From: an uncultured Vicinamibacterales bacterium
GTDB taxonomy: Bacteria > Acidobacteriota > Vicinamibacteria > Vicinamibacterales > UBA8438
Direction: 5' to 3'
Length of the DNA stretch: 64,000 nucleotides
Assembly: GCA_958295905.1 (NCBI GenBank)
Contig: OY282382.1
Span: 992,001 to 1,056,000 of the forward strand
Part shown: positions 4,713 to 25,757 of the stretch, one piece after another
Layout: every line of letters begins with the position of its first letter
Numbering within the stretch: the stretch's first letter is position 1
Notes under the pieces: generated by a model
What the model saw: only the letters and a program-made list of their open reading frames with translations
What the model was told of the DNA's origin: nothing
Database searches by the model: none
Made by a program: the position numbers and the translations under genes

Positions 4713-6356
<1,644 letters not shown>

Positions 6357-6497
6357 TGTTCGCCGTCCGACCGTGACCCGTCGGCGGGCCACTTGCATTG
6401 CTCGGCCGGCTCACGACCGCGCCGATTTGTGGTATATTTGCCTGATTCGATGGACACCTTCACGTGAGCGGATAGCGCTTTCTCGAATTTTGAGCCC

Positions 6498-7619
6498 ATG
6501 TCAATGTGGCACCACGGCAGCGAAACCCCGTATGACAAGCCAGAACCGCCGGTAAGCGACGGCTATCATCCGTTGCCGCCGGCCTTTCCCTGCGATCAGT
6601 GCGGGGAGGTTCGTCCATCAAAGGACGAACTGAGAAAACACAGATTCGAAGCCCATCCGTTGCACAGGCCGATCCTGTTTCTTCAAGGCCGCGAACTGGG
6701 CGACCACACAATTCGTGTCACGCGTCCTGTGACCGATGATGATGTCCGCCAGAATGACTGTGATCAAGCGTTCCTCAACGGGAGAGAGATCCCAGTTTCA
6801 TCCCTTTCTCGAGAGCTGGCACTAATTTCCTCGGGCGCATGCCAGCTTGAATTAATAAAGACAGGCGTTAGCGCAGTATTCAGGCTCAATTTCGACATCG
6901 CGTCAGTCGACGATCTCGATCGTGTGGAACGACGGTTTTTCGACCTCGTATGTGGACTTCACGGGAACCAGCTTAACAGCCGCGCTATCGACACCTTCAT
7001 ATCAGACACGGCCGTGTTCCCAACAGCCGCGGGCTACGTTGGCGGTATCTGTGAATATCTGTATGGACTCCAGACGAAGAGAGGCCAGCTAGACGCATCG
7101 CGGCCGTATGGGGAATATGTCAACCGATTCAACAGGTCAGTGGATGCACTCACCGCGTACGAACGGCCGCTGGCGAATACAATGGTGGCGGCAGTGGAAT
7201 TTCACTTCAATCACTTTCAGGAAGCGGCTAACCTTGTAACCGGCAACGGTCCCCTCGGCCATGCTGCCAACACCTATGCCTCCTGGGCCTTGGGCCAAGT
7301 GGCTGAATCACGGATGGACGCCGTTCCGAGCGTCGAGCTTGACGAGACGGAAATGGCGATTCTAGATGAAGTGACTGAGAAAATCGTGCGCTGGATTAAC
7401 CGTCCTCTCCAGGAGCTATCCAGATGTTTCCAGACGAAAATAGAATCCATTCTCCAAGATCATCCCGCAACGTACGACGATCTAAAGATACATATGCTAC
7501 TGGCGGAAATGTCCTTCGTCGTAGGGGACGTGGCAGATGTACGCCGGCACGCTAAGGCGCTGCATAACGTCGCCGGAATCGAGACGTGGGCTACGTCAAT
7601 GCTTTCGCGAATTCGATAA
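6498..7619 (+). CDS. C2H2 zinc-finger protein, first gene of three-gene accessory operon
   Basis: A 373-residue protein of unrecognised family. Residues 32-53 form a canonical C-x2-C-x12-H-x4-H zinc finger (CDQC ... KHRFEAH), unusual in a bacterial protein. The remaining 300 or so residues have no motif I recognise and look mainly helical towards the C-terminus. The ATG at 6498 was taken as start; a second ATG lies two codons later. It is 12 bp upstream of the coiled-coil gene and two genes upstream of an Hsp70 relative, so all three are probably co-transcribed. TATATT lies about 60 bp upstream and could be part of a promoter. Codon use is visibly less GC-biased than in the flanking fumarase, a sign of horizontal transfer. 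Confidence 0.72.
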   Translation: MSMWHHGSETPYDKPEPPVSDGYHPLPPAFPCDQCGEVRPSKDELRKHRFEAHPLHRPILFLQGRELGDHTIRVTRPVTDDDVRQNDCDQAFLNGREIPVSSLSRELALISSGACQLELIKTGVSAVFRLNFDIASVDDLDRVERRFFDLVCGLHGNQLNSRAIDTFISDTAVFPTAAGYVGGICEYLYGLQTKRGQLDASRPYGEYVNRFNRSVDALTAYERPLANTMVAAVEFHFNHFQEAANLVTGNGPLGHAANTYASWALGQVAESRMDAVPSVELDETEMAILDEVTEKIVRWINRPLQELSRCFQTKIESILQDHPATYDDLKIHMLLAEMSFVVGDVADVRRHAKALHNVAGIETWATSMLSRIR

Positions 7620-7631
7620 GGTGATCACACG

Positions 7632-8819
7632 ATGAACGCATCCAACCCCAGTGGCGACGACAACGAGAGTACTGCTGTCGACGACAGCGACCAACACGCA
7701 AACCGCGACTCCAGAACCACGGGCGCGGTTGGTGACACGGTTTCGGCGGCGGCCAACAAGGCGGTCGCACCGGATGGCGGTTCAAGGCGCGGGCGGTCTG
7801 CGAAGAAAAAACGCGTAGCGAGTGTAGCCGACCTAATAGGCGGTTGGTACGGTAATGCGAAGACAAAAATCCTCAAGGCACCGACGAAGCCACAAATGCG
7901 TGCTATGGCGACCGCATGGAAGCTGGACGAAACACAGGAACGACATTTGGTGGACTTGGCGTCTGCCGATAGGACATTAGACAAGACTCGTCAATTGTTG
8001 CTGCTCGTGGTGGGGATGCAGGAAGGAGCGATTGCGAGTACAGTGCAGAAGTTTGCCAAGCAAGTGCTTCATAATCACCCTATATTTAACACTCCTTCCT
8101 TTGCAGCCGTATTTGGGAACACACGTACGGCATCGAAGGCAGGTGGCATATCGGGCGAAATAGATGTAGCGAAACTCATTCATCTGGTGATGGCCAATGA
8201 TCTGCGGCTTTTGTTTCCCGCGAAGGAATTGGGAAGAAAGAGAAAAGGGGAACTGGAACGATGCCGGCATAACGCCGCGTGCTGCACTTTGATGTGGTTA
8301 TACCTAAGAGGTCAGATCAGTTGGGATCTGGCAATAAACTATCTGCGAGAGTATATTTGGAACCCACCGCCGGCTCGACACAAGACCGGATCGGAGATGT
8401 TGCGCGCAGTGATGGGTGCACGTGATATCGCGGCAGCGTCCGTAGCGTCTGCGTTGGTGGAAGAACAACTACGGGTGGCGCGGGCGGCTGAGAACCAAGC
8501 AACGGAGCGGGCTCAGAATGCAGATGCTAAGTTGACGGAGACGGAGACGGAGTTAGCAGAGGCCCGGGGGAGCAACGATGTCCTGCGGGGAAAGTTGGAG
8601 CGGGAGCGAAGGTTACGCGCTGAGGATGCGACGGCGTTGAAGGATGAGTATCAACAGTTGCGGGGAAGAGTTTTGCGGCGACTGCGCGAAGAAATATCAA
8701 TGCTGGAAGACGGCCTGCATGCGCTTAGGCGCGATCCGCCAAAGGTCGGTGTGATGATGGATCACGGTGAGAGGGTAGTAGACGGTTTACGACGAGAAAT
8801 GGAGCGGTTGCGGAGGTAG
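7632..8819 (+). CDS. Unknown protein with long C-terminal coiled coil
   Basis: A 395-residue protein of no recognised family. The first 60 residues are acidic and polar, probably disordered. A central region (about 65-280) contains a basic stretch (RSAKKKRVAS) and helical segments. From about 285 to the end it is a heptad-like coiled coil rich in Glu, Arg, Leu and Ala. GGTGAT eight bases before the ATG is a reasonable ribosome site, and the gene sits 12 bp after the zinc-finger gene and 6 bp before the Hsp70 gene. The coiled coil suggests oligomerisation or an adaptor role, for instance presenting a client to the Hsp70 partner; that is inference. Confidence 0.7.
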   Translation: MNASNPSGDDNESTAVDDSDQHANRDSRTTGAVGDTVSAAANKAVAPDGGSRRGRSAKKKRVASVADLIGGWYGNAKTKILKAPTKPQMRAMATAWKLDETQERHLVDLASADRTLDKTRQLLLLVVGMQEGAIASTVQKFAKQVLHNHPIFNTPSFAAVFGNTRTASKAGGISGEIDVAKLIHLVMANDLRLLFPAKELGRKRKGELERCRHNAACCTLMWLYLRGQISWDLAINYLREYIWNPPPARHKTGSEMLRAVMGARDIAAASVASALVEEQLRVARAAENQATERAQNADAKLTETETELAEARGSNDVLRGKLERERRLRAEDATALKDEYQQLRGRVLRRLREEISMLEDGLHALRRDPPKVGVMMDHGERVVDGLRREMERLRR

Positions 8820-8825
8820 TGGCAG

Positions 8826-10598
8826 ATGAAAGTTGTTGGCTTCGACTTCGGCACGACTAATAGTCTTGTTTCTATCGTCCAGGGAAGACGGGTTGTCAGT
8901 TTCCTGGACGAGGAGGAACGACCCATTCCGTCGGTGGTGTGTTACGAGGGCGGCCGAAAGATCCTGGGGCGTGAGGCGAAGCGGCGGCTTGTGCAGGCGG
9001 GCTTGGGAGTGTACGGCAACATTGTTCGGTCGCCAAAGAAGTATCTGGGGCGTGATGGCGTTACTGTGGAAGGGATCGAGCGGAGCCCGGTAGAGATGGT
9101 GGCGGACGTTGTCGGCCATGTACTGGAAGAGGCGCGGACGAGCGGAGGTTTGCGGGGACAAAATCTGGAAGGCGTTGATGGCGCTGTCGTGACGATTCCG
9201 GTGGATATGGAGGGATTGAGACGTCGCGCTCTTCGGGATGCGTTCAAACGGACCGGGCTGCGTATTGTTCAGTTCATTCACGAGCCGTTTGCGGCACTGT
9301 ACGGTTTTTTCCGAAAGAGAGGTCTGGCGGCGGCACTGAGGCGTTATGACGGCAAACTCTTGCTGGTATTTGATTGGGGTGGTGGGACGCTGGACTTGAC
9401 ATTGTGTCGGGTGAGGAACGGCACGGTTGTGCAGATCAAGAACGATGGTACCGACGAGGTCGGAGGTGATGTCTTCGACGAGACGGTGATGAACGGTCTT
9501 GAACGAGAGGTGAGGGCGACGCGAGGGCTGGATGAGGCCGTAGAAATACGTCAAGGAGCGTGGGCGCGCCTGCTTGATCGGTGTGAACGCGGCAAGATCG
9601 ATTTGTCATCTCGGCGGACGGTGGAGATTCACGTGCCGGATTTTTTCTTGGGGGGCGCGGATGAAGACTTCGGTCACACGCTGGATCGGGACGCGATGGA
9701 GGAGATCGTGGGACCTCTGCTTGAGAAGGGGTTTAAACGCATAGAGCGCATACTGGCGGCAGCGGACTATTCTTCAGAGCAGGTGGCACTTTGCTTGGCG
9801 ACCGGGGGCATGTCGAATATGCCAGCGGTGAAGCGTCGGCTGCATGAGTTGTTCGGGGCGGAGCGAGTAGAGATTCCAGACGGGACCGCTACGCTCGTCG
9901 CAGAGGGAGCGGCAGGAATTGCGGCGGATGGGGTTGGGCTAGTGTTGGCGAAGAACGTTGAGTTGCTGTTGGCGCGAGGAGCGTACCTTCCGCTGGTGAA
10001 GGCGGGGACGGTGATGCCGAAGGAGGGGGACGTTCAGCAGGAAAATTTTGATCTGTACTGCACGGATCCGCGAGACGGCACGGCAAAATTTCAGATTTGC
10101 GCGCCCGTGAGTGCGGGAGGGACGGTGAGGAGTAGCGATCCACGAGTACCGCTGGATATGGTTACGATAAGGGTGGATGCGCAGGCGCGGGCGTTTGGGG
10201 AAAGGTTGAAACTTGATGTGCGGATCGACGACGATCTGGTTCTGGGGGTGCACGCGCGTTCGCTGAATGCGGGGGACGAGGACCGGTGTGAGGTCCACGA
10301 ACTCGAGTTCGGGCTGGAGTTTCCGAGGGGTGGACGAGAGGGGGCGTTTGGGGATGGGTTGGCGGATGGAAATGGGTTGAAGGAGCGTCGCGGGGTGAAG
10401 GGCGCGATCACGATACGAGGCAATATTGCGGATCGGATGGATGATGCGCTGGTTCCGGGGGAGTTTCTCTACGCATACAATCGGTACTACTTTAGTGTGC
10501 AGCGTGATCCGCCGGAGGAGCAAGTGTACGAGAAGACGTACTACGAGCCGTGTGCGGGATGCGGGCGTGCATCGAACGATCCGGCTTGTCGGTGTTGA
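8826..10598 (+). CDS. Divergent Hsp70/DnaK-like ATPase
   Basis: A 590-residue member of the Hsp70/actin ATPase fold. GFDFGTTNS at residues 5-13 is the phosphate-1 loop. VFDWGGGTLDL near 180 is phosphate-2, and LATGGMSNMPAVKRRL near 320 corresponds to the adenosine-binding segment. EPFAALYGFF replaces the usual EPTAAALAYG. The C-terminal part does not resemble a standard DnaK substrate domain and ends in a Cys-rich tail, CAGCGRASNDPACRC, that could bind zinc. A strong GGAGGT overlapping the end of the preceding gene places the ATG at 8826. No DnaJ or GrpE is nearby, so this is not a housekeeping chaperone cluster. The last 58 bp overlap the convergent nuclease-helicase gene. Confidence 0.85.
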   Translation: MKVVGFDFGTTNSLVSIVQGRRVVSFLDEEERPIPSVVCYEGGRKILGREAKRRLVQAGLGVYGNIVRSPKKYLGRDGVTVEGIERSPVEMVADVVGHVLEEARTSGGLRGQNLEGVDGAVVTIPVDMEGLRRRALRDAFKRTGLRIVQFIHEPFAALYGFFRKRGLAAALRRYDGKLLLVFDWGGGTLDLTLCRVRNGTVVQIKNDGTDEVGGDVFDETVMNGLEREVRATRGLDEAVEIRQGAWARLLDRCERGKIDLSSRRTVEIHVPDFFLGGADEDFGHTLDRDAMEEIVGPLLEKGFKRIERILAAADYSSEQVALCLATGGMSNMPAVKRRLHELFGAERVEIPDGTATLVAEGAAGIAADGVGLVLAKNVELLLARGAYLPLVKAGTVMPKEGDVQQENFDLYCTDPRDGTAKFQICAPVSAGGTVRSSDPRVPLDMVTIRVDAQARAFGERLKLDVRIDDDLVLGVHARSLNAGDEDRCEVHELEFGLEFPRGGREGAFGDGLADGNGLKERRGVKGAITIRGNIADRMDDALVPGEFLYAYNRYYFSVQRDPPEEQVYEKTYYEPCAGCGRASNDPACRC

Positions 10599-13500
10599 AG
10601 GTAGGCCGCGGCAGTGGTGAAATCCGCCAGCTCCAGGAAGCGGCAGAAGGGGTTGGCGAGACGCATCTGCTCCGGAGTGCGGCAATCCGGCGTGGGGAGC
10701 GCCGGACTGGCGACGATCGCGGCCACGCAGCGGGCGCGCGAGGTGGCGACGTTGAGGCGGTGCAGGCTGTAGAGGAACTCCATCCCCCGCGGCGCCTCGT
10801 CGGCGGTCGAGGTGGCCATGGAGTAGATCACGATCGGCGCCTCCTGTCCCTGGAACTTGTCGACCGTGCCCACGCGCGCGCCGGTCGGCAGCGTCGCCCG
10901 CAGAACGGCGACATGCGCATTGTAGGGGGCCACGACGAGGATGTCGTCAAGCGTCAGTCGTTCCTGGACACCCTGCCCGTCGATCCAGGCGGCCCCGGCG
11001 TCGAGCAGCTCGAGAAGCAGCGCCGCGACGTATTCGGCTTCCTCGGCCGAGGCGTTCGTGTTGCCGGCATGCTCCACGGGAATGAAGCGCAGGCCGCACC
11101 CGGCCAGCGGCCCCGGCCCGACCACCGCCTGCCGGCCGAGCTCCGGGCGGGCGCGGAGCCGTCCCTCGTAGAACTGCTCCGTGGTGAACGCGCAGATGTC
11201 CGGGTGCATGCGCCACGTGTGGTCCAGGAAGACGCCGCGGGACGGGTCGACGGTCGCCGATTCGCCGAGAAGGTGGCCGAGGGCCGAGACTCCGGCGCCG
11301 GGCGGGTGGACCCCCTGCATGGGCTGATCGAGCTGGCGCGGATCGCCGAGCAGGACGAGGTTTCCCGCGGCCTGGCAAACGGCGAGCGTGTTCGCGAGGC
11401 TCATCTGTCCGGCCTCGTCGATGACGAGCACATCCACTTGGCCGGCCATCTCCGCGCGCGCCCACAGCCACGCGGTGCCCCCGGCGAGGTTGGCGTCGCC
11501 CGTGGCCAGGGCCTCGGCCACCTCCTCGTTGGAAGCGGTTTGGACGATCCGCTCGTCGGGGCAGCCGTCGCCGTCGTTCGCCTTCTGGATCCCGCGCACG
11601 TCGACCGCCGCTTGCCGCGCTGGCCTGCCGCCCGACCCATGTCCGGCGCGTCTACCGGTCCGGCCGTTCTCGACCGGCGGGCTGTCGGCCGAGTCGCACA
11701 CGGCGGCGAGCAGGTTGGAGATCACCTTGTGGCTGTTGGCGGTCACCCCGACCCGCTTCCCGCCGGCGAGCAGGTCGAGGATCATCCGGGCTCCGGTCCG
11801 GGTCTTGCCGCTGCCCGGCGGCCCCTGCACGGGGAGCACCGAGCGGTCGAGCCGCGGGGCGATCCGCAGGACGGCGGCCCGCGGAGCTTCGTCCTGGGCA
11901 ACGAGGCCTTCCCGGGCGGCGAAGCTCGACGTGTTCGGTAGAGACGCCGGGGTTCCGATGCGCGGCGGGACGCGTCTGAGCAGGTCGAACGCCGCCCGCC
12001 GCGGGCTGTCCGCCGCGAAGCCGCCCGACACGACCGCTTCTGCGAGCCGGGCGAGACTCTCCCGCAACACCTTGTTCTGGACGGCGTCGAGCGGCACCAG
12101 CGCCGCCGGGTGCGGCACGGGAGAGCTGCGCCCGCGCTTCAGGTCGATCGTGCCGGCGGTTTCGTCCAGCGCGAACACCGTCCCGCAGAATCCCCGCTTG
12201 AGTTCATCGGATTCGGCGGTGGCGGGGTTCTTCGGCGAGTCTCCGACGGCGATCTCGTGCGGCTGCTCGGGGAAGCGGTAGCGGTGGACGACGGACCTCT
12301 TCACCTGCTCGACCTCACTGTCGTAGGTCAGCACGCCGAGCGTGGCCCGGCTCTCGACGTGCTCCTCCTCGGTGAAGCCGCACCGGTGGAAGAACTCCCA
12401 CCACATGGACTTGTCCTCGCGCCGGTGAAACTCCAACAGGTGCGCCAGCAGCCGCCGCGCCCGCTGTTCGTCGTCCAGCTCGGCGTCGTCGACCGGCAGC
12501 CCGGCGGTGAGCGCCTCGAACAGTGCCGCGGTCTCGACCGCCGGTTCCTGCTCCCGGTCGCGTTCCTCGTCCCGGAGCGCGGGCCGCGGTACCGGCTGTC
12601 CGGTGAGAGCCGGCAGATCGCCCCGGCGTTCTTCCAGCCACGCGGCGAGGCGCAGCGTCGAGAGACAGTCGTCCCGGTTGTAGCCCTCGATCTCGGTCCG
12701 CAGCGGCGGCGGGACCCCGGCCGCGGCGCCCGACTCGAGCCGCACCTCGAACTGAATGAGCGCCCGCGTCGCCGTGGTCAGGTCCACCGCGCGGGCGAAG
12801 CCGTAGAACGGCTCCAGCCTCTTGATCGAGTAGCTCTCGACCGAGGCGCGCAACCCCTGCCGGACCACGCGGTGGAGGTCGACGAACACGCGGCCGCGCA
12901 GAAGCCGGTCGACCTCGTCCCCGCGGGTGGCGTAACGGCTCATCAGGCGCTTGACGGCGGTGGTCTCGTAGGCGCCGTAGTGGTAGACGTGGAAGCCGGG
13001 ATGCTGTTCCCAGCGCGCCATGACGTGGTCGATGAAGCGCTCGAACGCGCGCTTCTCGCTCGCCGGGTCGAGCGCCCACGACGCGTTGTGGTTGCCGTCG
13101 CGGTCCGCGACGCCGAACAGGTACTCGAGCCCGCCGTCCGCTGCGAAGGCGTCCCCTTCGAGGTCGAAGAACATGTCGCCGGCCGACGGCTCGGGCAGCG
13201 CCGCAAGCCCCCGGTCGGGCTCGACCGGCGTGACGAGCTCGTGGATGCGGCGGCCCTCGCGCCGCGCTTGGTCCTGCACCCGCGCCTGCTCGCGGATGCG
13301 GGCCAGCGCGGCCCCGCCGATTCCGTCGGGCCGGGGAGAGAGCGGCAGGCGTAGCGCGCCCAGCGCCGCCATCGTCGTCACCTCCCGTTCGACCAGCCGG
13401 CCCCGCTGGCCGCGGGTGATGCCGGCGACCAGCGAGAGGTGGTCGTCGGCGCGGCGGCGCGCCGCGCAGGACTGCCGCCACTCGCAGATGCCGCAGTGCT

Positions 13501-14164
13501 CGACCGGCTCCGGGTAGGTCTCCGGCGGGGAGGCGGCGTGCGCCTCGAACCGCCGCCGGACGGCGCGGTAGTACGCCGCGTACTCCGCAACCCGGAAGCT
13601 CGCCGGGTTCTGGCTGCCGTCCCCGCCGAGCGCAAGATGAGTCCGCTCGGGTTCCATGCCTTGCGCCTGCGCCAGCAGGTCCGAGTACAGAAGAAGCTGC
13701 AGCAGCGCCTCGCCCTTCGCCCGGCGGGCCAGCTTCGCATCGAGCACCTCGTAGGACCATCCGCCCAGCGCGCTCGGCCGGTCTACTCGGAGCAGGAAGT
13801 CGGGATGGCCGCTCCACCGCCCGCCGTCGTCCTCAAGGCGCCCCTGGTAGATCACGTCGGTCCCGCGGCTCATGGCTTCCCGCGTGCGCGTGGCGGTCGC
13901 CGCGGCGTCCCGGTGCGGGAACGGCATGTCGGATGGCACGATCGTCTCGACGAGGCGCCCGTCGGCCGCGAAGCGATCCAGGAGACCCCGCTCATGCTCG
14001 ATGCCGCGCTGTCGCAGCGCCTCGGCGCGTGGGTCGTCGTACGGTGGCGGCGGATCGACTTCCCCGAATGCCACGGCGCGGCGCAGGCTCGTGAGGTGGG
14101 TGCAGGCGAGATGGCGGCTGAGGTCGGTGGCCGAGAACGAGAGCCGGCCGTTGGCGAGGCGCAT
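10541..14164 (-). CDS. TM0106-type RecB nuclease / RNase H-like / SF1 helicase fusion
   Basis: About 1207 residues. Near the N-terminus, residues 85-190 form a RecB-like PD-(D/E)XK nuclease (GHPDFLL, YEVLDAKLA, QLLLYSDLL), followed by a cysteine cluster CGICEWRQSC that may bind an Fe-S centre. A DEDD-type RNase H-like domain follows (FFDLEGDAF; YNRDDCLSTL). The last 450 residues are an SF1 DNA2/NAM7-type helicase: Walker A QGPPGSGKT near 780, DEAGQM near 915, LLGDPRQL, KFQGQEA and a VATSRAR motif. The gene is intact. ATG at 14164 matches family starts (MRL..GRL); ATG at 14182 is an alternative. It converges on the Hsp70 gene with a 58-bp overlap. Likely DNA or RNA processing, possibly defence. 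Confidence 0.9.
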   Translation of the reverse strand: MRLANGRLSFSATDLSRHLACTHLTSLRRAVAFGEVDPPPPYDDPRAEALRQRGIEHERGLLDRFAADGRLVETIVPSDMPFPHRDAAATATRTREAMSRGTDVIYQGRLEDDGGRWSGHPDFLLRVDRPSALGGWSYEVLDAKLARRAKGEALLQLLLYSDLLAQAQGMEPERTHLALGGDGSQNPASFRVAEYAAYYRAVRRRFEAHAASPPETYPEPVEHCGICEWRQSCAARRRADDHLSLVAGITRGQRGRLVEREVTTMAALGALRLPLSPRPDGIGGAALARIREQARVQDQARREGRRIHELVTPVEPDRGLAALPEPSAGDMFFDLEGDAFAADGGLEYLFGVADRDGNHNASWALDPASEKRAFERFIDHVMARWEQHPGFHVYHYGAYETTAVKRLMSRYATRGDEVDRLLRGRVFVDLHRVVRQGLRASVESYSIKRLEPFYGFARAVDLTTATRALIQFEVRLESGAAAGVPPPLRTEIEGYNRDDCLSTLRLAAWLEERRGDLPALTGQPVPRPALRDEERDREQEPAVETAALFEALTAGLPVDDAELDDEQRARRLLAHLLEFHRREDKSMWWEFFHRCGFTEEEHVESRATLGVLTYDSEVEQVKRSVVHRYRFPEQPHEIAVGDSPKNPATAESDELKRGFCGTVFALDETAGTIDLKRGRSSPVPHPAALVPLDAVQNKVLRESLARLAEAVVSGGFAADSPRRAAFDLLRRVPPRIGTPASLPNTSSFAAREGLVAQDEAPRAAVLRIAPRLDRSVLPVQGPPGSGKTRTGARMILDLLAGGKRVGVTANSHKVISNLLAAVCDSADSPPVENGRTGRRAGHGSGGRPARQAAVDVRGIQKANDGDGCPDERIVQTASNEEVAEALATGDANLAGGTAWLWARAEMAGQVDVLVIDEAGQMSLANTLAVCQAAGNLVLLGDPRQLDQPMQGVHPPGAGVSALGHLLGESATVDPSRGVFLDHTWRMHPDICAFTTEQFYEGRLRARPELGRQAVVGPGPLAGCGLRFIPVEHAGNTNASAEEAEYVAALLLELLDAGAAWIDGQGVQERLTLDDILVVAPYNAHVAVLRATLPTGARVGTVDKFQGQEAPIVIYSMATSTADEAPRGMEFLYSLHRLNVATSRARCVAAIVASPALPTPDCRTPEQMRLANPFCRFLELADFTTAAAYLQHRQAGSFDARPHPAHGS

Positions 14165-14217
14165 GGAGCGGGACGATAGCATGAAGCTGCCGCGGCCCGC
14201 CGGTCGTCTCGAACGGG

Positions 14218-14329
14218 GCAGGCACGCCGTCGCGGCGACGGCCGACGGCTACTCCCCGCCGGGCGGTTCGTTGCGTACAGGCGAAGCTAGAGCGCAGGCA
14301 CGCCGTCGCGGCGACGGCCGACGGCTACT
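14218..14329 (+). repeat. Direct repeat pair, 36 bp, period 76 bp
   Basis: A 36-bp sequence containing CACGCCGTCGCGGCGACGGC occurs at 14218-14253 and again, identically, at 14294-14329 in the spacer between the nuclease-helicase and the nucleotidyltransferase operon. The intervening 40 bp are not repeated. It belongs to a set of similar pairs in this window with a period near 74 bp. Confidence 0.9.
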
Positions 14330-14413
14330 GAACCCGCGGCCACGCGACCCACGCCGCGGCCGGAGCATGGGGCGGCAACCACACGTGCGACACTCTAGAC
14401 AGTCTCAACCCGG

Positions 14414-14932
14414 GTGGACATGCGAGCGACTGAATCGAAACAAGCGGACGCCGGCGTTCTCGCGAGGACCGCGGCGGCAAAGCTCAGTGAACTGGCTGCC
14501 GAAGCCCAAGCCGGCTGGGACGAGACGACCCTCGAGCGGCTCATCGTCAAGGGCCTCACCCGCTACTACCACGGCATCGACGACGTCGCGCGCAGGGTGC
14601 TCGCCGCGGCGGAGCCGCCGCTCACCGCCACCGTCTGGGACGCCGTGATCGCGGCTACCGTTGAGCACGCGTGCACGACGCACGGCGTAGACGTGCCCGC
14701 GTGGACCCAGGCCCCCGAGCGCTTTCTGAAACGGCCCTGGGTCTACCGGCGCGGACCCATCGAGCGAGGCACGGCGCTGGCCAATGCGCCGGCCGCCTTC
14801 ATCCGCCACAATACGTTCATCGAACCGCGAAACCTTGACGACCGGGGAGGAGAGCGCCATGTCTGGGCCCCTCACGAGGGCGCGGCTCCTCGAGCTGTTC
14901 GACCGCCTGAACGAGAAGCTGAAGCAGGCTGA
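14414..14932 (+). CDS. Unknown protein upstream of DUF6036-type nucleotidyltransferase
   Basis: A 172-residue protein with no catalytic motif I recognise. It is helical at the N-terminus and has a conserved-looking segment around WTQAPERFLKRPW and AAFIRHNTFIEPRNL. Similar small proteins accompany DUF6036 nucleotidyltransferase genes in other genomes. The gene overlaps the next one by 74 bp, so the pair is translationally linked. Translation can begin at GTG 14414 or ATG 14420; the second is two codons in and equally plausible. The arrangement is reminiscent of a toxin-antitoxin or regulator-enzyme pair, but which role this protein has cannot be told from the sequence. Confidence 0.65.
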   Translation: MDMRATESKQADAGVLARTAAAKLSELAAEAQAGWDETTLERLIVKGLTRYYHGIDDVARRVLAAAEPPLTATVWDAVIAATVEHACTTHGVDVPAWTQAPERFLKRPWVYRRGPIERGTALANAPAAFIRHNTFIEPRNLDDRGGERHVWAPHEGAAPRAVRPPEREAEAG

Positions 14933-15416
14933 TCAGCACGCCGAGGTGTACATCGTCGGCGGTGCGATGATGGCCCTTGCCCACGATGCCCAGCGGGTGA
15001 CCGAGGATGTCGACTCGCACATCCGCCACGGCCGCGAGACGGTCACCGAGGCGGTCGCCGAGATCGCGGACGAAGAGGGCCTGAGCAGGTACTGGCTGAA
15101 CGAGGCCGTGACCCTGCGCTACCTGCCGGCAGACCCGGACCGGGGCGAGTGGCGTGTCTACACCAACACGCACCTGACCATCGAGGGCGCCTCGACCGCG
15201 CGGATGATCGCGATGAAGCTGCACGCGGGCCGCCCCCCCGATCTGGCCGACCTCGACATCTTGCTGAAAGCGGCAGGGGTCAAGACGCGGCGGGAAGCCG
15301 AGCGGCTGCACGAGCTGACCTACGGTACCGAGCCGATGGCGGCTGAGGCCGATCTGTATCTGATCGAACACTACGTCCGCCGTCCGCCGCACCTGGACAC
15401 CGGATCGACACGATGA
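14859..15416 (+). CDS. DUF6036-type nucleotidyltransferase-like protein
   Basis: A 185-residue protein. VYIVGGAMMALAHDAQR followed by TEDVDSHI matches the GGxA...DxD pattern of minimal nucleotidyltransferases of the DUF6036 group. MIAMKLHAGRPPDLADLDILL further on is also typical (a conserved K..A.R..D..D segment). An ideal GGGGAGGAGA about 8 bp upstream fixes the ATG at 14859, well inside the 3' end of the preceding gene. It overlaps the following gene by 4 bp (ATGA). MNT-type proteins often act as antitoxins or modify partner proteins by adding nucleotides; here the partner could be either neighbour. Confidence 0.8.
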   Translation: MSGPLTRARLLELFDRLNEKLKQADQHAEVYIVGGAMMALAHDAQRVTEDVDSHIRHGRETVTEAVAEIADEEGLSRYWLNEAVTLRYLPADPDRGEWRVYTNTHLTIEGASTARMIAMKLHAGRPPDLADLDILLKAAGVKTRREAERLHELTYGTEPMAAEADLYLIEHYVRRPPHLDTGSTR

Positions 15417-15949
15417 GCGGCCACGACGCCACCGCGGCGAACCCGGCGCCGGCGAACGTGGTGGCCGGCCCACGGGAGGAACGCGCCGAGACGGTACTGC
15501 ACCGGCTCGAGGCGCACATGGCCAAGAGCAGGCTGCGCGGCCACATCTACCTGACCGGGCGCACCGTGGTCGAGTTCGCGACCCGCCAGAAGCGGACCGA
15601 CAGGCCGCTGGAACGAAATGTCGGGCCGGCTCCGGTCAGACGCGCTCTCGCGGAAATACTGCGCGGGGAAGAAGAGCCGGAGCGCTGGCTGACGCGCCTG
15701 CGCGCCAGAGCGGCCGGGCAAGCGCCGGCGCCGGCGCTGTGGAACAGCCCGGCCCTGGTGGTGACGGGCGCCATGGCCAGCCGGGCGCTGTGCGCAGCGC
15801 TCGAGCACGAAGCGGACTACCCGGCCGAGACCATCGACCGCCTGATGCAAGAGGCGGACATGGGCGGGAACGAGGTCGCGGCGATGTTTGAGGAAGTGAC
15901 CGGCAAGCCGCTGAGGGCGAGAGTCGGGGCGGGGGGCTTGAAGGAGTAG
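15413..15949 (+). CDS. Unknown protein, third gene of nucleotidyltransferase operon
   Basis: A 178-residue soluble protein without a recognised domain. Its start codon overlaps the nucleotidyltransferase stop codon (ATGA), which implies coupled translation and a shared function. It is rich in Ala, Arg and Glu and predicted mostly helical. A middle segment (TVVEFATRQKRTDRPLE) is polar and basic. It ends 20 bp before the 3' end of the convergent ADOP permease gene. The family is not recognised; the only functional hint is the operon. Confidence 0.6.
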   Translation: MSGHDATAANPAPANVVAGPREERAETVLHRLEAHMAKSRLRGHIYLTGRTVVEFATRQKRTDRPLERNVGPAPVRRALAEILRGEEEPERWLTRLRARAAGQAPAPALWNSPALVVTGAMASRALCAALEHEADYPAETIDRLMQEADMGGNEVAAMFEEVTGKPLRARVGAGGLKE

Positions 15950-15968
15950 AACCCATGGCGCGTCCATG

Positions 15969-18485
15969 CTAATCGCAACGGATCGCCGTCACCGGATCGA
16001 CGCCGGCGGCCCGTCGTGCGGGCAGGTAGCCGGCGGGCAGGCTGGCGGCCAGCGTCACGACGACGGCCGACAGCATGGTCGCCGGGTCGTGGCCGGCGAG
16101 CTCGAACAGTTGGCTTTCGACGAGGCGATTGAGGGCCGACGCGGCCGCTAGTCCGACGGCCAATCCGAGTCCGACGGTCGTCAGGACTTCCTTCATGACA
16201 GAACCCAGCACGTCGCGCCGGGTGGCTCCGAGCGCCATTCGGATCCCGATCTCCTTCAGGCGTCGCACGACATTGTGCGACGTCAGGCCGAAGAGCCCCA
16301 CCATCGCGGTCAGAAGCGCCAGGGCGCCGAACGCGCTGGAGACAACGGCCATTCCCCTCTCGCTGCTCAGGTGATTGGCGCCGATGCGGTCCACAAGCGT
16401 CGTGACGTTTCCGAGGGGAAGTTGTGGATCGATCTCCCGCATTGCGCTTTCTACGGCGGAGACCGCGGCGCGGGGCGGTCCCGTGGTCCGGACGAGGACG
16501 CTTCGCGCGGGCCGGGACAGTTGAGTCGCCGGCAGGTAGAACGTGGGCGGGGCGGCGTCGCGGATGGTGTTGACTTTGGCGTCGCCCACGACTCCGATGA
16601 CCTGGACCTCACGGGGCCCGCCGCGGAAGCGCTGACCGATGGGGCTGCCGCGAAAGAAGGCGTTCGCGAAAGCTTGGTTCACCAAGGCCACCGGCTGGGA
16701 GCCGGGCGTGTCGTCCGGGGAGAACCCGCGCCCCGACAGAAGCGGTATCCGGAGCGTCTCGAAGAAGTCATGGTCGACGCTGAGCATGTGGGCTTCGGGG
16801 CGGTCTGTTCGACCAGCGAGCTCTATCCGAATCCTGATCCCGCCGCCGTCGAGAAGAGTTCCGCCGATGGTCGCCGAGCTCACGGAGCGGATGCCGGGCA
16901 TACTCGACAGCCGATCGTTCATGCGGTGATAGAGAGACGCCGCCTGCGGACCGTCGTACCCGCTCAACTCGGGCCGCAACGTGAACAACAGGACGTTGGC
17001 GGGGTCGAAGCCGAGGTAGGTCTGTTGGAGATTCGACAGTGTTCGCAGGAACAGACCGGCGCCCACCAGGAGAAAGACGGTCAGGGCGACCTGGACGGCG
17101 ATGAGCGAACGGCCGAGCCGCTTGTGCGAACTCGACCACGTGCCCGCGTCCCGTTTGGCGGGGGGGGCGGAGGCAAGACGCGTGGCATGAAGAGCCGGGC
17201 CCGCGCCGAACAGAAGTGCGGCGATGAAGATCAGCAGCGCGGCGAACACGAGGACCGGCGGAGTGAGGATGGTGGCGTCGGCCGGCAACCGCAGCGGCAG
17301 GCTGGTGGACCAGAGGGACAACCACACGGTGGCGAGGAGGCCGACGGCGCCGCCGATACCGGCCAGGACGAGGCTCTCGACCAGCAATTGCGCTGTCAGG
17401 CGGGTACGTGACGCCCCGAGGGCGGCGCGGACGGCGAACTCCCGTTGACGCATCGCGCCGCGGGACAGGAGGAGAGTGGCGACGTTGACGCACACGATAA
17501 GGAGAACGGCGCCGAGCATGCCGGCCACGATGGCGATCCGGGTGATCGTGTGCCGGGATACGTCGGAAACGCCGTGTCGGGCCGAGACAACATGCAACCG
17601 CGGCGGCGGAAGGGGCGGTGACCTGACGGTGGGCGCTTGCGCCGCAGGTCGCGCCGCCTGTCGAAAGGCGAGGTCGAGCTTGGCCTCCACCGTCTCGCGG
17701 CGAACGGCGGGCTTCAAACGCGCCATGACCGCCAGCCACCAAGTGGATGGACTGCGCAGCAGTGAGGCGGGGCCGCGGAGGCGGGGTTCGATGCCGAGTG
17801 GAATGGAGACGTCGGGCGCGTCGGGCAGGCCGCGCGCCATGAAGTCGGGAAGGTCCGCCGGGGAAACGCCGACGATGGTGAACGGCATGCCGTTGATCCT
17901 GATCGTCCCGCCTACGACGGAGCCGTCCGTTCCGTACCGCCGAACCCGGTACTGGTGGCTGATCACCGCGACCGGGTCCGCCGAGTCGTCATCGTCATGG
18001 GGCCTGATCATCCGACCCTCGTCGGCTTCCACCCCCAACGAGGGGTAGAAGTTGCCGGACACGAACTGCCCGGTGACGAATTCCGCCCGCCCGTCGGCGA
18101 ATACGTTCAACGGACCGGATGGAGCGAATGCGAAGAGATCGAACGACGACCGGCCGGCGTGCCGAAGCTGTTCGACGATATCGAAGGGGAAGGTGTGTCC
18201 GCCGCGGCTTACGTCGCCGCCGGCGATGTGGGCGTAGTGGTACGACGCGCGCCGTTCGTTGGGGGGGGCGCCGGACCAGCGCAGAGTCACCAGTTCATCG
18301 GGGTTGGCGACCGGCGGGTGGCCGAGGGCGTAGTGGTAGAAGACGGCGAACAGGGCCGTACTCGATCCGATGCCGAGCGCGAGGGAGAGAATTGCGGCGG
18401 CGGTCCACGCTCTGGTGCTGCGCAGGGTGCGAAGAGCGTGGCGGGCGTCCCGCCGGACTGCTTCCAGCGGGCCGAACCTGAGCAT
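15969..18485 (-). CDS. ADOP-type ABC transporter permease (FtsX/MacB fold)
   Basis: An 838-residue permease of the acidobacterial duplicated orphan permease type. TM1 near residues 30-50 is followed by a MacB_PCD periplasmic domain, three TMs (FtsX core) near 370-490, a second periplasmic domain, and three C-terminal TMs. SRGAMRQREFAVRAALGASR and LKEIGIRMALGATRRDV are the two FtsX core signatures, one per half. No ATPase is adjacent on this strand, consistent with the orphan arrangement. ATG at 18485 follows AGGAAGGAAGG. An in-frame ATG at 18575 would add 30 residues. Probably an efflux or lipoprotein-handling permease; the substrate is unknown. Confidence 0.88.
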   Translation of the reverse strand: MLRFGPLEAVRRDARHALRTLRSTRAWTAAAILSLALGIGSSTALFAVFYHYALGHPPVANPDELVTLRWSGAPPNERRASYHYAHIAGGDVSRGGHTFPFDIVEQLRHAGRSSFDLFAFAPSGPLNVFADGRAEFVTGQFVSGNFYPSLGVEADEGRMIRPHDDDDSADPVAVISHQYRVRRYGTDGSVVGGTIRINGMPFTIVGVSPADLPDFMARGLPDAPDVSIPLGIEPRLRGPASLLRSPSTWWLAVMARLKPAVRRETVEAKLDLAFRQAARPAAQAPTVRSPPLPPPRLHVVSARHGVSDVSRHTITRIAIVAGMLGAVLLIVCVNVATLLLSRGAMRQREFAVRAALGASRTRLTAQLLVESLVLAGIGGAVGLLATVWLSLWSTSLPLRLPADATILTPPVLVFAALLIFIAALLFGAGPALHATRLASAPPAKRDAGTWSSSHKRLGRSLIAVQVALTVFLLVGAGLFLRTLSNLQQTYLGFDPANVLLFTLRPELSGYDGPQAASLYHRMNDRLSSMPGIRSVSSATIGGTLLDGGGIRIRIELAGRTDRPEAHMLSVDHDFFETLRIPLLSGRGFSPDDTPGSQPVALVNQAFANAFFRGSPIGQRFRGGPREVQVIGVVGDAKVNTIRDAAPPTFYLPATQLSRPARSVLVRTTGPPRAAVSAVESAMREIDPQLPLGNVTTLVDRIGANHLSSERGMAVVSSAFGALALLTAMVGLFGLTSHNVVRRLKEIGIRMALGATRRDVLGSVMKEVLTTVGLGLAVGLAAASALNRLVESQLFELAGHDPATMLSAVVVTLAASLPAGYLPARRAAGVDPVTAIRCD

Positions 18486-19169
18486 GGGTTTTCCGCCTTC
18501 CTTCCTGAGGCGGCGAGCCTCGTTGGGATCACTCCGCCGCCGCGTGGATGACGTCGTTGCTCGTCCGCATGCCAACCCTCCTGTCCGGCGCCGGGCCGGT
18601 GCGTGGGTCCCGCCGTCCCCGCCGGCCGGGGGATTTTCGACGGTTCACTCTCCAAGAGGGTCTTGAAGGTCGTAAGCTTACCAGGTTTCTCGATTTTTTG
18701 GATCGTGCCGGCGGGTCTCGGGCAGGGGCATCCCACGCCGACTGCGCGTGACGTCTCGCCCCCGAGTCGAGGGGTCGCCACCGTCTTGCCGACCGGCCGC
18801 CGCCGCGTGAGACCCACGATTCCGCACGTCCGGAGCCCCGGGACCCGCCACGATGCCGCCTGCGCACGGCGGCGGCGGAGCGTGGGATGGTCCTGGGGTC
18901 TCGGGAGTCCTGGTAAGAGGGGGCGCTCGACGATCGGACGCGACAGGGCGGCGTGCTCGATGCAGGCGCACGGCTGCGTTCGCCGGGAAAGATGCCGTCG
19001 GTGCGCGGCGTCGGCGTGCGGGCGGGTGGTCCTTGAGGTCGCGGAGCCGCACGACGGTCGTACATCGTAGTCCGTTCGAGATCGAGATCGGCGTGGCCGC
19101 GGGTTTGGGCGCCGCAGGCCAACGGTGCTATCGTGAGCCGTTCCTCACCGGTTCCGCACGAGACGTGAC
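18486..19169. other. Intergenic region between divergent permease genes
   Basis: Roughly 680 bp separating the ADOP gene from the divergent ABC operon. Both must be promoted from here. It holds several GC-driven open frames on both strands, but none has a family match, convincing start or conserved-looking product. A short AT-rich run, TTTCTCGATTTTTTGGAT, around 18685-18703 may mark a promoter. No RNA gene or repeat found elsewhere in the window was recognised. Confidence 0.5.
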
Positions 19170-22044: not shown

Positions 22045-22752
22045 ATGAGCGGTGACAACGGTACCGATCCCGTCGTGGAGCTGAAGGAGGTCACCAAGGT
22101 CTACCGGCAGGGGGATCAGCAGGTCGAGGCGCTGCGCGGGCTCACGACGGCGGTGCGGAGCGGCGAGTTCACCGCGATCTGCGGGCCCTCGGGATCGGGC
22201 AAGACGACCGCCCTCAACCTCATCGGCGCGCTGGACTCGCCGACGTCGGGGACCGTCCGCTTGGAGGGAGCCGACCTCGGGACCCTGTCCCGCCAGGAAC
22301 TGAGCCACCTGCGCCGCGACCGCATCGGCTTCGTGTTCCAGGCCTACAACCTGCTGCCGATCCTCAGCGCCTACGAGAACGCCGAGATCGTGATGGCGGT
22401 GCAGGGGGTGGCCGAGGCCGAGCGCCGGCCGCGGGTCATGGCGCTGCTGGCCCGCGTCGGGCTCGAGGGGCTCGAGGACCGGCGCCCGGCCGAGCTCTCC
22501 GGCGGCCAGCAGCAGCGGGTCGCCATCGCGCGGGCGATCGCGGCGGGGCCGGCCGTGGTGCTGGCCGACGAGCCGACCGCCAACGTCGACTCGACCACCG
22601 CCGACGCGCTGCTCGAGATGATGGAGACCCTGAACCGGGAGCAGCAGGTCACCTTCCTGTTCTCGACCCACGACCCCCGGGTGATGGCGCGCGCGCGGCG
22701 CCTGATCCGTCTCGTCGACGGCCGCATCGAGAAGGACGATGTGCGCGGCTGA
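22045..22752 (+). CDS. ABC transporter ATP-binding protein (LolD/MacB type)
   Basis: A 235-residue ABC ATPase. Walker A is GPSGSGKTT, the Q-loop is FQAYNLLP, and the signature is [16 protein letters not shown]. Walker B is [12 protein letters not shown] and the switch His lies in [10 protein letters not shown]. The length and the Y-N-L after the Q-loop fit the LolD/MacB/FtsE branch. GGAAGGTGA six bases before ATG 22045 fixes the start; a TTG one codon earlier is less likely. It energises the two permeases encoded immediately upstream. It stands alone, not fused to a permease as in MacB, which supports a Lol-like three-component system. Confidence 0.93.
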
Positions 22753-22792
22753 CGGCGCCGCGCCCCGTGGCCGGCCGCCGGATCGCAGCACT

Positions 22793-23920
22793 CTACTTGG
22801 GCTGCGAAGCCGCCGACCCGCCCGCCGCGAGTTCGAGGAGTGAACGGGCGCGGTCCGGGTTCCGCGATTTCGAGCGCGTGCCCGTCATCGTCTTGGTCTG
22901 CCGCTGCCTGCCGCCGTCGCCGGGAAGCGGATCGGCGTCACCGGCGGGCCACAGGATGCCCGGACGCGGCACGCGGTAGTAGTTGGACGGGGCCTTCGGA
23001 TCGGCGGCGGCCCTCGCCGTCTCCCGCGGATCGCGAACGAAACGGCCGAGAGCCGCTTCGCAGTAGTCCTCCAGAAGCTCGATGCAGACCCAGCGCCGGC
23101 CGATGCGTTCGCAGACCTCGCCGGTGACACAGCTTCCGGCGAAGGGATCGACCACCAGGTCGCCGGGTTCCGTGAGCATGCGGACGAAGAACTCCGGCAA
23201 CTCCGCCGGATACCGGGCCGGGTGCGGCTTCAAGCCTCTCTGCCCGCAGTAGCGCAAGTAGAAGCTGTTGCTCTCGGTGTTCGGAATGGCGAGAAGGTTC
23301 GGCGGAATCGCGGCGCCGTTGTCGACGCCGAAGTTCTCGCTGATCTCATGGCCGGACGGGCGCTTCTTGGCCCTGTAGCCCTTGGCCAGCAGGTCCTGCA
23401 TGCTCGAGCTGTAGGGCTGGAGAACGCGCCGATTGCCCGCCTTCGGCCAGGGCGTCTTGGAGAGCCACCAGACCGTATTGATGGCGTCCTTGACCCGGAT
23501 CCGCCGAACCGTGACCCATTCGGCGGGCGTCGGCAGCTTGGACGGGTTCCACCAGTAGAAGTCCTGCGCAAGGTGGAAGCCCAGGTCCTCGCACAACATG
23601 ATCAAGAGTTTGAAGTGATAGAGGTTCCTCGTCGGGTGGCCTTTGTTCCACGCGCCGCCGATATCGATGACCAGACTGCCGTTGTCCTTGATGACACGCC
23701 GGAATTCCACGGCGAAGGACTTGAACCATTCGACGTATTCATCGGCTTCGACGTTGCCGTAGTCCTTCTTTCTGACCAGCCCGAAGGGCGGGCTCGTCAT
23801 GATCAGATCGACGGACGCATCCTCACGGGCGGCCAACACGTCGATGCTGTCGCCGTGAACGATCCGCCCGAGGGACGTTTGGTGAAAGCCACGGAAATCC
23901 GCGGACCCTTTCTCGGTCAT
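22793..23920 (-). CDS. Site-specific DNA methyltransferase (N4/N6), R-M partner
   Basis: A 375-residue amino-methyltransferase. Motif IV TSPPFG comes early (about residue 43) and motif I DPFAGSCVTGEVCERIG late, the beta-class order for N4-cytosine or N6-adenine enzymes. The middle (about 110-250) holds the target-recognition region. ATG 23920 follows a TAGGAA that overlaps the stop codon of the endonuclease gene 10 bp upstream; the longer version starting at 23974 would overlap that gene heavily and adds no family residues. It pairs with the endonuclease to form a Type II-like restriction-modification unit, endonuclease first. The recognition site cannot be predicted. Confidence 0.92.
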   Translation of the reverse strand: MTEKGSADFRGFHQTSLGRIVHGDSIDVLAAREDASVDLIMTSPPFGLVRKKDYGNVEADEYVEWFKSFAVEFRRVIKDNGSLVIDIGGAWNKGHPTRNLYHFKLLIMLCEDLGFHLAQDFYWWNPSKLPTPAEWVTVRRIRVKDAINTVWWLSKTPWPKAGNRRVLQPYSSSMQDLLAKGYRAKKRPSGHEISENFGVDNGAAIPPNLLAIPNTESNSFYLRYCGQRGLKPHPARYPAELPEFFVRMLTEPGDLVVDPFAGSCVTGEVCERIGRRWVCIELLEDYCEAALGRFVRDPRETARAAADPKAPSNYYRVPRPGILWPAGDADPLPGDGGRQRQTKTMTGTRSKSRNPDRARSLLELAAGGSAASQPK

Positions 23921-23930
23921 GGCTGCATTC

Positions 23931-25304: not shown

Positions 25305-25757
25305 GGAGAGACTCCACGTTCACGCGTCGGTAGCCTGGGAACGGACGACGCTTCGGATGGTGACGTATCGCAGGAACTGGCATTGTGGCGGGCTCGCGAT
25401 GTGTTCCATCATTTACGAGCAAGAATCACGCCAAGAGTCGGCGCTGGTGACCGCTCCGTGCTGGCTGATGATACTCCGGGGAGAGAAGAGCCGTCACGGG
25501 CGCAATGCGTCGGGACGGGCATGTCAGATCCGGGCGGGCGCGCAGGCGCCGGACAGGGTTTCAACGGGTGACCGGCGATTCGGCGGCGGGGGCCTCGCCG
25601 GCGCCGGCGTGTGATGGGAGGCGGCGGGGCCGGGCGGCAACCGGCGTTGACGGGCGGCGGCCGGTGATCTTGGGCTCACGGGTAGTGGGGGCGCCGGATG
25701 CCGGACGTCCCGCCCTGCTTGCGCCCGGCGGGACGGTGAGACATCCCGGCGGGGCGG
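25305..25757. other. Intergenic region without a recognised gene
   Basis: About 450 bp upstream of the restriction operon and downstream of the secreted-protein gene. The part nearest the endonuclease (25360-25450) is less GC-rich and probably holds its promoter. No open frame here has a plausible start with family resemblance, and I see no repeat shared with other parts of the window. Confidence 0.55.

What the first reader, a model, noticed from the sequence alone, without database searches (positions are those of the whole stretch)
8826..14164. Hsp70 operon and nuclease-helicase gene overlap tail to tail by 58 bp
The Hsp70 reading frame ends at 10598 while the convergent TM0106-type nuclease/helicase ends at 10541. 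The Cys-rich Hsp70 tail is therefore encoded antisense to the helicase C-terminus. Convergent transcription of this kind can produce antisense interference and suggests the two units have been inherited as one block. The fusion protein combines two nuclease folds and a helicase in one chain.
Basis: seen in the sequence. Interest (0 to 1): 0.5.

Follow-up and report, generated by a model that had tools for sequence, protein, structure and literature searches.

The report
Chance overlap beside mobile Hsp70 cassette
The 58-base overlap looks like a chance scar where a foreign three-gene Hsp70 cassette came to lie against a helicase gene, but the cassette itself is notable because distant relatives of it sit inside BREX anti-phage defence operons.

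Summary
The overlap is real: Hsp70 ends at 10598, the convergent nuclease-helicase at 10541. It is not a conserved unit. Helicase DNA homology stops at 10623-10631 in 10 of 10 relative loci; the window's frame then runs on 27 residues, and its last 19 match the antisense of another cassette's Hsp70 tail (15 of 19). Such read-through is expected (63% of antisense positions). The cassette (ORF1 zinc-finger protein, ORF2 coiled-coil protein, Hsp70) has 54-59% GC, the flanking genes 69-72%. ORF1 is absent from 59 of 59 relatives; seven cassette-bearing genomes or records lack the helicase; two same-genus genomes lack about 6355-19100 at this place. 'Inherited as one block' is not supported. The Cys-rich tail is a C4 motif in 9 of 9 family members, the window's included. 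Unexpectedly, the cassette lies between pglX and pglZ in two diverged BREX operons, and near other PADLOC defence genes in three further loci. I read it as a mobile, defence-associated Hsp70 cassette; its function is untested.

The parts
6498..7619 (+). ORF1: C2H2-like zinc finger (C32, C35, H48, H53) plus a predicted beta region and helical repeats, 373 aa
   Evidence: zf-C2H2 below cut-off; C/H invariant in 7 of 7 sequences, the window's included; the IS-interrupted plasmid copy left out of 115; model pLDDT 75
7632..8819 (+). ORF2: helical protein ending in a long predicted coiled-coil helix and a short helix, 395 aa
   Evidence: model pLDDT 71, helix 266-367 then 372-394; no Pfam (E <= 0.1), PADLOC or NCBIfam (E <= 0.01) match
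8826..10598 (+). Hsp70-family ATPase with a C-terminal four-cysteine motif, 590 aa
   Evidence: PF00012 163.5 bits; putative ATPase residues and C576, C579, C588, C590 invariant in 9 of 9 sequences, the window's included
10541..14182 (-). TM0106-type RecB-like nuclease / RNase H-like / SF1-type helicase, 1213 aa
   Evidence: relatives in the same family and order
10541..10598 (.). 58-bp tail-to-tail overlap
10544..10624 (-). 27-residue read-through extension of the helicase after the conserved LELA
   Evidence: DNA homology stops here; 14 of 17 relative frames end fewer than ten residues after this point, three 17 or more; residues 1195-1213 match the antisense of the L034 Hsp70 tail, 79%
10596..10624 (.). 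stretch that most likely holds the junction between cassette-derived and helicase-derived DNA
   Evidence: Cassette protein homology runs to the last Cys codon 10593-10595; helicase DNA homology starts at 10623-10631
6355..19100 (.). variable island absent at this place from two same-genus genomes
   Evidence: fumarase homology ends at 6354, homology resumes at 19098 (G002) and 19123 (G001); 1359 and 902 bp of other DNA lie between there

Best explanation
Shown: the helicase frame has lost its own stop at the point where its homology ends and reads on 27 residues, the last of them through DNA of the Hsp70 cassette read backwards; the three-gene cassette (ORF1, ORF2, Hsp70) has lower GC and lies head-on against it in an island that two same-genus genomes lack at this place. 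Inferred from this: the overlap is a junction scar. Shown: the cassette is a conserved, sporadic unit carried by distant bacteria, in the seven tested cases without the helicase, and in two diverged BREX operons it occupies the slot between pglX and pglZ. Inferred: it is a defence-associated accessory module. Inferred mechanism: the Hsp70 is an ATP-driven switch (its putative ATPase residues are conserved). ORF1, through its zinc finger, and the Hsp70 C4 tail recognise a client (phage protein, nucleic acid or a defence enzyme). ORF2 is the coiled-coil bridge. ATP cycling holds or releases a defence complex, with the PglX/PglZ enzymes in the BREX form and unknown partners in stand-alone copies such as this one.
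For: Junction. Composition. Read-through control. Empty site in 2 of 2 same-genus genomes. ORF1 in 0 of 59 relatives. Cassette without helicase, 7 of 7 tested of 9 genomes or records. Nine distinct cassette loci: window; L032/L033; L034 and L035; L076 and L077; L078; L084; L100. BREX slot twice: L077 (PADLOC BrxB 1.3e-75, BrxC 0, PglX 0, PglZ 1.6e-294, BrxL 1.2e-303) and L100 (BrxL 4.2e-299, PglZ 1.6e-303, PglX 0, BrxC 0); their Hsp70s are 45% identical. Other defence neighbours: type IIG gene 6.1 kb away on a conjugative plasmid; PDC-S37 488 bp away, with a phage-type integrase 2.6 kb upstream of the cassette; PDC-M19B and M19A starting 5.5 and 6.4 kb away. Putative ATPase residues invariant in 9 of 9, aligned to solved DnaK.
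Against: The window copy has no BREX genes beside it; its host has PglZ loci elsewhere, so any BREX partnership here would be in trans. L034 and L078 were not scanned with PADLOC, and of L076 only two neighbours were, without a match; I saw no defence gene by eye in the L034 ORF list. No base rate was measured for how often a random gene lies near PADLOC families. The cassette proteins themselves have no PADLOC match except a weak one of the L100 ORF2 to LmuB (E 5.5e-4). Neither ORF1 nor ORF2 has a confident fold match, so the recognition and bridge roles are guesses. No expression or phage data.
Confidence: 0.72

Rival explanations
1. The overlap is a selected regulatory arrangement: convergent transcripts interfere and tie expression of the Hsp70 operon to that of the nuclease-helicase, and the pair travels as one unit.
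For: The two frames do overlap; no terminator-like site lies in the overlap, so run-through transcripts are conceivable.
Against: No other genome or record examined has the pair (local stretches of two more); the length of the helicase tail varies in relatives; base composition differs sharply; the overlap length is what chance read-through gives.
Confidence: 0.05
2. The cassette is an ordinary mobile stress chaperone set (Hsp70 plus co-chaperones), with no defence role; its defence neighbours reflect shared mobility on islands and plasmids.
For: Putative Hsp70 ATPase residues are conserved; mobile contexts: conjugative plasmid, integrase near L084's cassette and recombinase on L076.
Against: Two diverged BREX operons carry it in the same internal slot with touching or nearly touching genes: L077 pglX-ORF1 gap 2 bp and Hsp70-pglZ overlap of 4 bp; L100 gaps 6 and 54 bp. 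Island co-residence does not explain that. No J-domain or GrpE match in ORF1 or ORF2 by Pfam (window and plasmid copies).
Confidence: 0.2
3. The cassette is a phage sensor that guards protein folding: phage proteins that engage the dedicated Hsp70 trigger ORF1/ORF2 signalling to an effector, as host DnaJ is needed for sensing by bNACHT25.
For: Precedent that a chaperone mediates phage sensing (PMC12169576, abstract and section list seen); dedicated Hsp70 with conserved partners.
Against: No effector domain is recognised in ORF1 or ORF2; stand-alone copies would need a partner not identified here.
Confidence: 0.2

Closest known systems
Type I BREX (brxB, brxC, pglX, pglZ, brxL)
   Same: Two cassette homologues are embedded in such operons between pglX and pglZ; the label 'type I' is mine from the gene set, brxA was not scanned, and brxB was seen only in L077.
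   Different: The window's cassette stands alone. In PADLOC 2023 the L077 cassette proteins match nothing and of the L100 ones only ORF2 weakly matches LmuB. The main text of a 2026 BREX survey holds no word beginning with 'hsp' (PMC12839542, abstract, section list and term searches).
CoCoNuT systems (McrBC relatives with Hsp70-like units)
   Same: Hsp70-like unit with coiled coils in a defence setting (PMC11090510, passages).
   Different: The passages describe Hsp70-like units fused to McrB or McrC parts with degenerate Walker A-like motifs; here the Hsp70 is a separate protein with conserved putative ATPase residues, and no McrB/McrC match is found in the cassette.
DnaK-DnaJ-GrpE chaperone machine
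   Same: Hsp70 nucleotide-binding domain aligned to solved DnaK.
   Different: Far below the DnaK equivalog cut-off (153.1 against 822.55 bits); four-cysteine tail at the C-terminus; no J or GrpE match in ORF1/ORF2 by Pfam and no GrpE match of ORF2 by hhalign.
TM0106-family nuclease-helicase (TIGR03491 + AAA_11/AAA_12)
   Same: Score above the family cut-off and full architecture. In PADLOC it also matches helicases of other defence systems, best MkoA 9.7e-35, in the helicase part.
   Different: Only the last 27 residues, which are read-through.

Membership tests
Hsp70 / DnaK superfamily | Nucleotide-binding domain with phosphate-binding and adenosine motifs | tested here: met
   PF00012 163.5 bits; D7, T10, T11, K71, E153, D183, G185-187, T188, G327, G328 invariant in 9 of 9, profile aligned to DnaK 4rtf; residue roles recalled
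Hsp70 / DnaK superfamily | Substrate-binding beta domain | tested here: inconclusive
   Only a sub-threshold match over positions 459-490 to 4rtf, though one other DnaK (5obu) aligns to position 490; Pfam HSP70 match of L032 extends to profile position 491
DnaK equivalog | Score over the curated DnaK cut-off | tested here: not met
   TIGR02350 153.1 against 822.55 bits
Type I BREX operon | pglX, pglZ, brxC, brxL around the gene | tested here: not met
   None among the 9 window proteins of 4713-18575 scanned with Pfam and 7 of these scanned with PADLOC; met for L077 and L100
CoCoNuT | McrB-like GTPase or McrC unit fused to or encoded with the Hsp70 | tested here: not met
   Hsp70 is a stand-alone 590-aa frame; no McrB/McrC match in the cassette or the adjacent genes scanned
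GrpE nucleotide exchange factor (considered for ORF2) | Profile match to GrpE | tested here: inconclusive
   hhalign of the ORF2 C-terminus (8 sequences) against 6 of 14 fetched GrpE loci: probability 0.3% or less (8 loci dropped because my recalled motif did not find them); no Pfam match at E <= 0.1; fold searches unhelpful
TM0106-family nuclease-helicase | TIGR03491 domain plus SF1-type helicase domains | tested here: met
   270.5 bits against 97.45; AAA_12 88.0, AAA_11 46.3 against 27

The most novel reading that the evidence does not exclude
ORF1-ORF2-Hsp70 is a previously undescribed, mobile, chaperone-based anti-phage module that works alone in some genomes and forms an integral extra part of a BREX subtype (pglX-ORF1-ORF2-Hsp70-pglZ-brxL) in others.
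Probability: 0.45. Interest if true: 0.75.

Novelty: new variant of a known kind. Interest (0 to 1): 0.48.

Why it matters
The overlap itself is ordinary and need not be followed up. The cassette matters because open questions about how BREX works persist (abstract of PMC12839542); an Hsp70 with two fixed partners in the middle of BREX operons would bring an ATP-driven chaperone switch into a defence system in which my searches found none described, and the two operons make that directly testable by single-gene removal.

Tried and rejected
Block inheritance of Hsp70 operon and helicase: rejected. Antisense origin of the Cys tail: rejected; the four cysteines are invariant in 9 of 9 sequences, and the helicase is absent from the 7 other genomes or records tested. 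The reverse is what happened: residues 1195-1213 of the helicase match the antisense of the L034 Hsp70 tail. GrpE identity of ORF2, suggested to me by eye: no support. Foldseek had no match at E <= 0.001 for ORF2 or ORF1; VIA-align rows for ORF2 (coiled coils, 14-3-3, Z up to 7.2) lie in the range its notes call uninformative.

Searches with little or no yield: the search for related loci with ORF2 alone in genome contigs, nothing; Hsp70 C-terminal patterns in viral contigs, nothing; ORF1 and full Hsp70 alignments in viral contigs, only the two contigs already held. Plasmids, 72,556 records: Hsp70 matched 240, of which 20 were listed, two Paenarthrobacter plasmids at 46.8% and the other 18 at 27.1% or less; ORF1 matched the same two only; ORF2 none, although those plasmids hold a diverged ORF2, so that search was insensitive. 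Phages, 50,697 records: Hsp70 matched 36, the 10 listed at 29.9% or less; ORF1 (L077 version) none.

Rarity of the cassette: 2 of 396 (own phylum), 2 of 369 (class of L034's genome), 1 of 396 (phylum of L035's genome; same contig number and place as G339, so probably that genome again; L035's own ORF1 is cut off by its contig end and was missed), 2 of 398 (phylum of L034's genome). The samples overlap in part and each contains its own starting genome.

Literature: searches listed 15 of 101, 0, 5 of 5, 20 of 53, 20 of 149, 12 of 46, 0 and 14 of 14 papers; among the listed, only the CoCoNuT papers put an Hsp70-like unit into a defence system as far as their titles, abstracts' starts and the passages read show, and PMC12169576 uses host DnaJ. 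DefensePredictor (PMC13092281) has no Hsp70, DnaK or chaperone in its main text (term search). A search for TM0106 with helicase gave no paper. The library lacks most subscription papers, so prior description cannot be excluded.
Full report
Observation. The helicase has a TM0106-family RecB-like nuclease part over its curated cut-off, an RNase H-like part and SF1-type helicase parts.

The overlap is a scar. In the ten relative helicase loci fetched with flanks, DNA homology to the window ends between 10623 and 10631 in 10 of 10, at the last conserved residues (...CRFLELA; alanine codon 10625-10627). In 17 relative helicase genes the frame then ends after fewer than ten residues in 14 and after 17 or more in three (G017, G026, G022); protein alignments run to residue 1186-1197 in the same-family loci and to 1201 and 1209 in two distant ones. 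The window's frame runs on 27 residues (1187-1213), 18 of them wholly opposite the Hsp70 frame. Residues 1195-1213 match the antisense of the Hsp70 tail of another cassette, L034, at 79%, which shows directly that this end is cassette DNA read backwards. On the other side, the Hsp70 family is alignable to its last cysteine (10593-10595), and the other 8 of 8 members carry 1 to 19 further residues where the window stops. The junction therefore most likely lies within 10596-10624. As a control, the antisense strand of the cassette was read from every position: 63.4% of the 4001 starts that meet a stop stay open for at least 18 codons. A published survey found 124 of 178 convergent overlaps above 60 bp to be 3' extensions, and most of the other 54 conserved only in very close species (PMC2478687, passages).

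Not one block. ORF1, ORF2 and Hsp70 have 54.5, 55.6 and 58.9% GC; fumarase to the left has 69.2% and the helicase 72.1%. ORF1 is found in 0 of 59 relatives at E <= 0.001; the helicase at E <= 1e-50 in 16 of 59; many of these assemblies are incomplete. In both same-genus genomes fumarase is followed, after 902 or 1359 bp of other DNA, by sequence that in the window starts near 19100, so cassette, helicase, AbiEii-like cluster and MacB-like gene all lie in an island that is variable at this place. Of the nine window genes from fumarase to MacB, only the helicase was found in the ten relative helicase loci, so the helicase too changes neighbours. Three whole genomes and four records with the cassette lack the helicase at E <= 1e-20 (0 of 7; records may be fragments, and that call had no positive control of its own). 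Two more cassette genomes were checked only in 19.5-kb stretches: none in L100, and in L084 only a 23% match to helicase motifs of a different protein.

The cassette is a conserved unit. Besides the window, the order ORF1-ORF2-Hsp70 was read in seven further loci and its last part in an eighth: Paenarthrobacter conjugative plasmids (two near-identical records counted once; ORF1 interrupted by IS3 in both), a gammaproteobacterial MAG (L034), two viral-collection contigs (L076, L077), one genome of the same phylum (L078), two genomes reached from L034's class and phylum (L084, L100), and a Bryobacterales MAG whose contig starts inside ORF2 (L035). Hsp70 identity between loci is 43-71%, ORF2 16-43%, ORF1 24-49% (ORF1 without L032 and L035). 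C576, C579, C588 and C590 of the Hsp70 tail are invariant in 9 of 9, and C32, C35, H48 and H53 of ORF1 in 7 of 7, the window included. Putative ATPase residues are invariant too, and the profile aligns with solved DnaK (their roles are recalled). The cassette is rare: 2 of 396, 2 of 369, 1 of 396 and 2 of 398 genomes in four partly overlapping samples that include their starting genomes, and 2 of 72,556 plasmid records by ORF1.

Defence setting. In L077 the cassette (8001-12173) is inside a BREX operon: brxB, brxC, pglX, then ORF1-ORF2-Hsp70, then pglZ and brxL. In L100 the same slot is used: brxC, an extra gene, pglX, ORF1-ORF2-Hsp70, pglZ, brxL. The two Hsp70s are 45% identical, close to the lowest value of any pair (43%), so this is not one recent copy. 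On the Paenarthrobacter plasmid a type IIG restriction gene (E 1.8e-290) lies 6.1 kb away and DUF262 genes on the other side. In L084 a PDC-S37 helicase-nuclease (E 0) converges on the cassette at 488 bp, and a phage-type integrase lies 2.6 kb upstream. In L035 PDC-M19B and M19A start 5.5 and 6.4 kb away. L034 and L078 were not scanned with PADLOC; of L076 two proteins were, without a match. In the window the AbiEii-like gene (E 1.2e-4 in PADLOC) and the helicase, which matches MkoA and other defence helicases in its helicase part, are the nearest candidates. I measured no base rate for such neighbours, so only the repeated BREX slot carries strong weight.

Mechanism. Shown: an Hsp70-type ATPase with conserved putative active-site residues and a C4 tail is encoded with a zinc-finger protein and a coiled-coil protein in every locus where the contig reaches. 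Inferred: an ATP-driven switch that holds or releases a client or a defence complex. The models of ORF1 (pLDDT 75) and ORF2 (pLDDT 71) gave no confident fold match, and an idea that ORF2 is GrpE-like failed a profile comparison (6 of 14 GrpE loci used). A chaperone-mediated sensing precedent exists (host DnaJ with bNACHT25; PMC12169576, abstract). CoCoNuT Hsp70 units are described as fused to McrBC parts, with degenerate Walker A-like motifs (PMC11090510, passages), unlike this one. The window's host has PglZ loci elsewhere, two of them beside PglX-family frames and one of these also beside BrxL, so a BREX partner in trans is possible but untested.

Novelty. The overlap is ordinary. The BREX-embedded cassette proteins have no PADLOC 2023 match except a weak LmuB one of L100's ORF2, and the main text of a 2026 BREX survey has no 'hsp', 'dnak' or 'chaperone' (PMC12839542, abstract and term searches). 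Searches for BREX with Hsp70, Hsp70 family protein or DnaK listed 20 of 53, 0 and 14 of 14 papers, of which only the CoCoNuT papers looked relevant (listings and starts of abstracts). The library is incomplete, so prior description cannot be excluded.

Noticed in passing
L077:8001-12173 and L100:6224-10536: ORF1-ORF2-Hsp70 cassette between pglX and pglZ in two diverged BREX operons.
   Followed up: partly
window 22793-25304: A type II DNA methyltransferase (PADLOC E 1e-119) with a 457-aa neighbour without a PADLOC match; 22757-25760 has no match in one same-genus genome and 22747-25747 none in the other, so it looks like a second variable restriction-type insert.
   Followed up: partly
window 14784-15416: AbiEii-like nucleotidyltransferase between two small unknown genes; the trio has an 81% identical copy on a 4.3-kb contig of a same-genus genome.
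   Followed up: no
window 14218-14253 and 14294-14329: Perfect 36-bp direct repeat just upstream of the helicase start.
   Followed up: no
L110 (G000:C1:2832500-2852400) and L109 (G000:C1:655000-674900): The window's own genome holds BrxL/PglZ/PglX-like frames (PglX matches split over two frames) and, elsewhere, PglXI/PglZ; a closely similar PglZ frame is also on contig C3.
   Followed up: partly
L032:5460-7851 and L033:5460-7851: On both Paenarthrobacter plasmids copies of one IS3 transposase (same protein accession) interrupt ORF1, at different places, and on L033 another copy interrupts the fourth gene.
   Followed up: partly
L032:10769-12109: A fourth gene (446 aa, no confident family) follows Hsp70 directly on the plasmids; tblastn at E <= 1e-3 finds no counterpart in the window or in the seven other cassette loci.
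   Followed up: partly
L084:13671-19487: A 1938-aa DUF4011/MTES_1575/AAA_11-12 helicase-nuclease (PDC-S37) converges on the cassette there, as a different nuclease-helicase does in the window; possibly coincidence.
   Followed up: no
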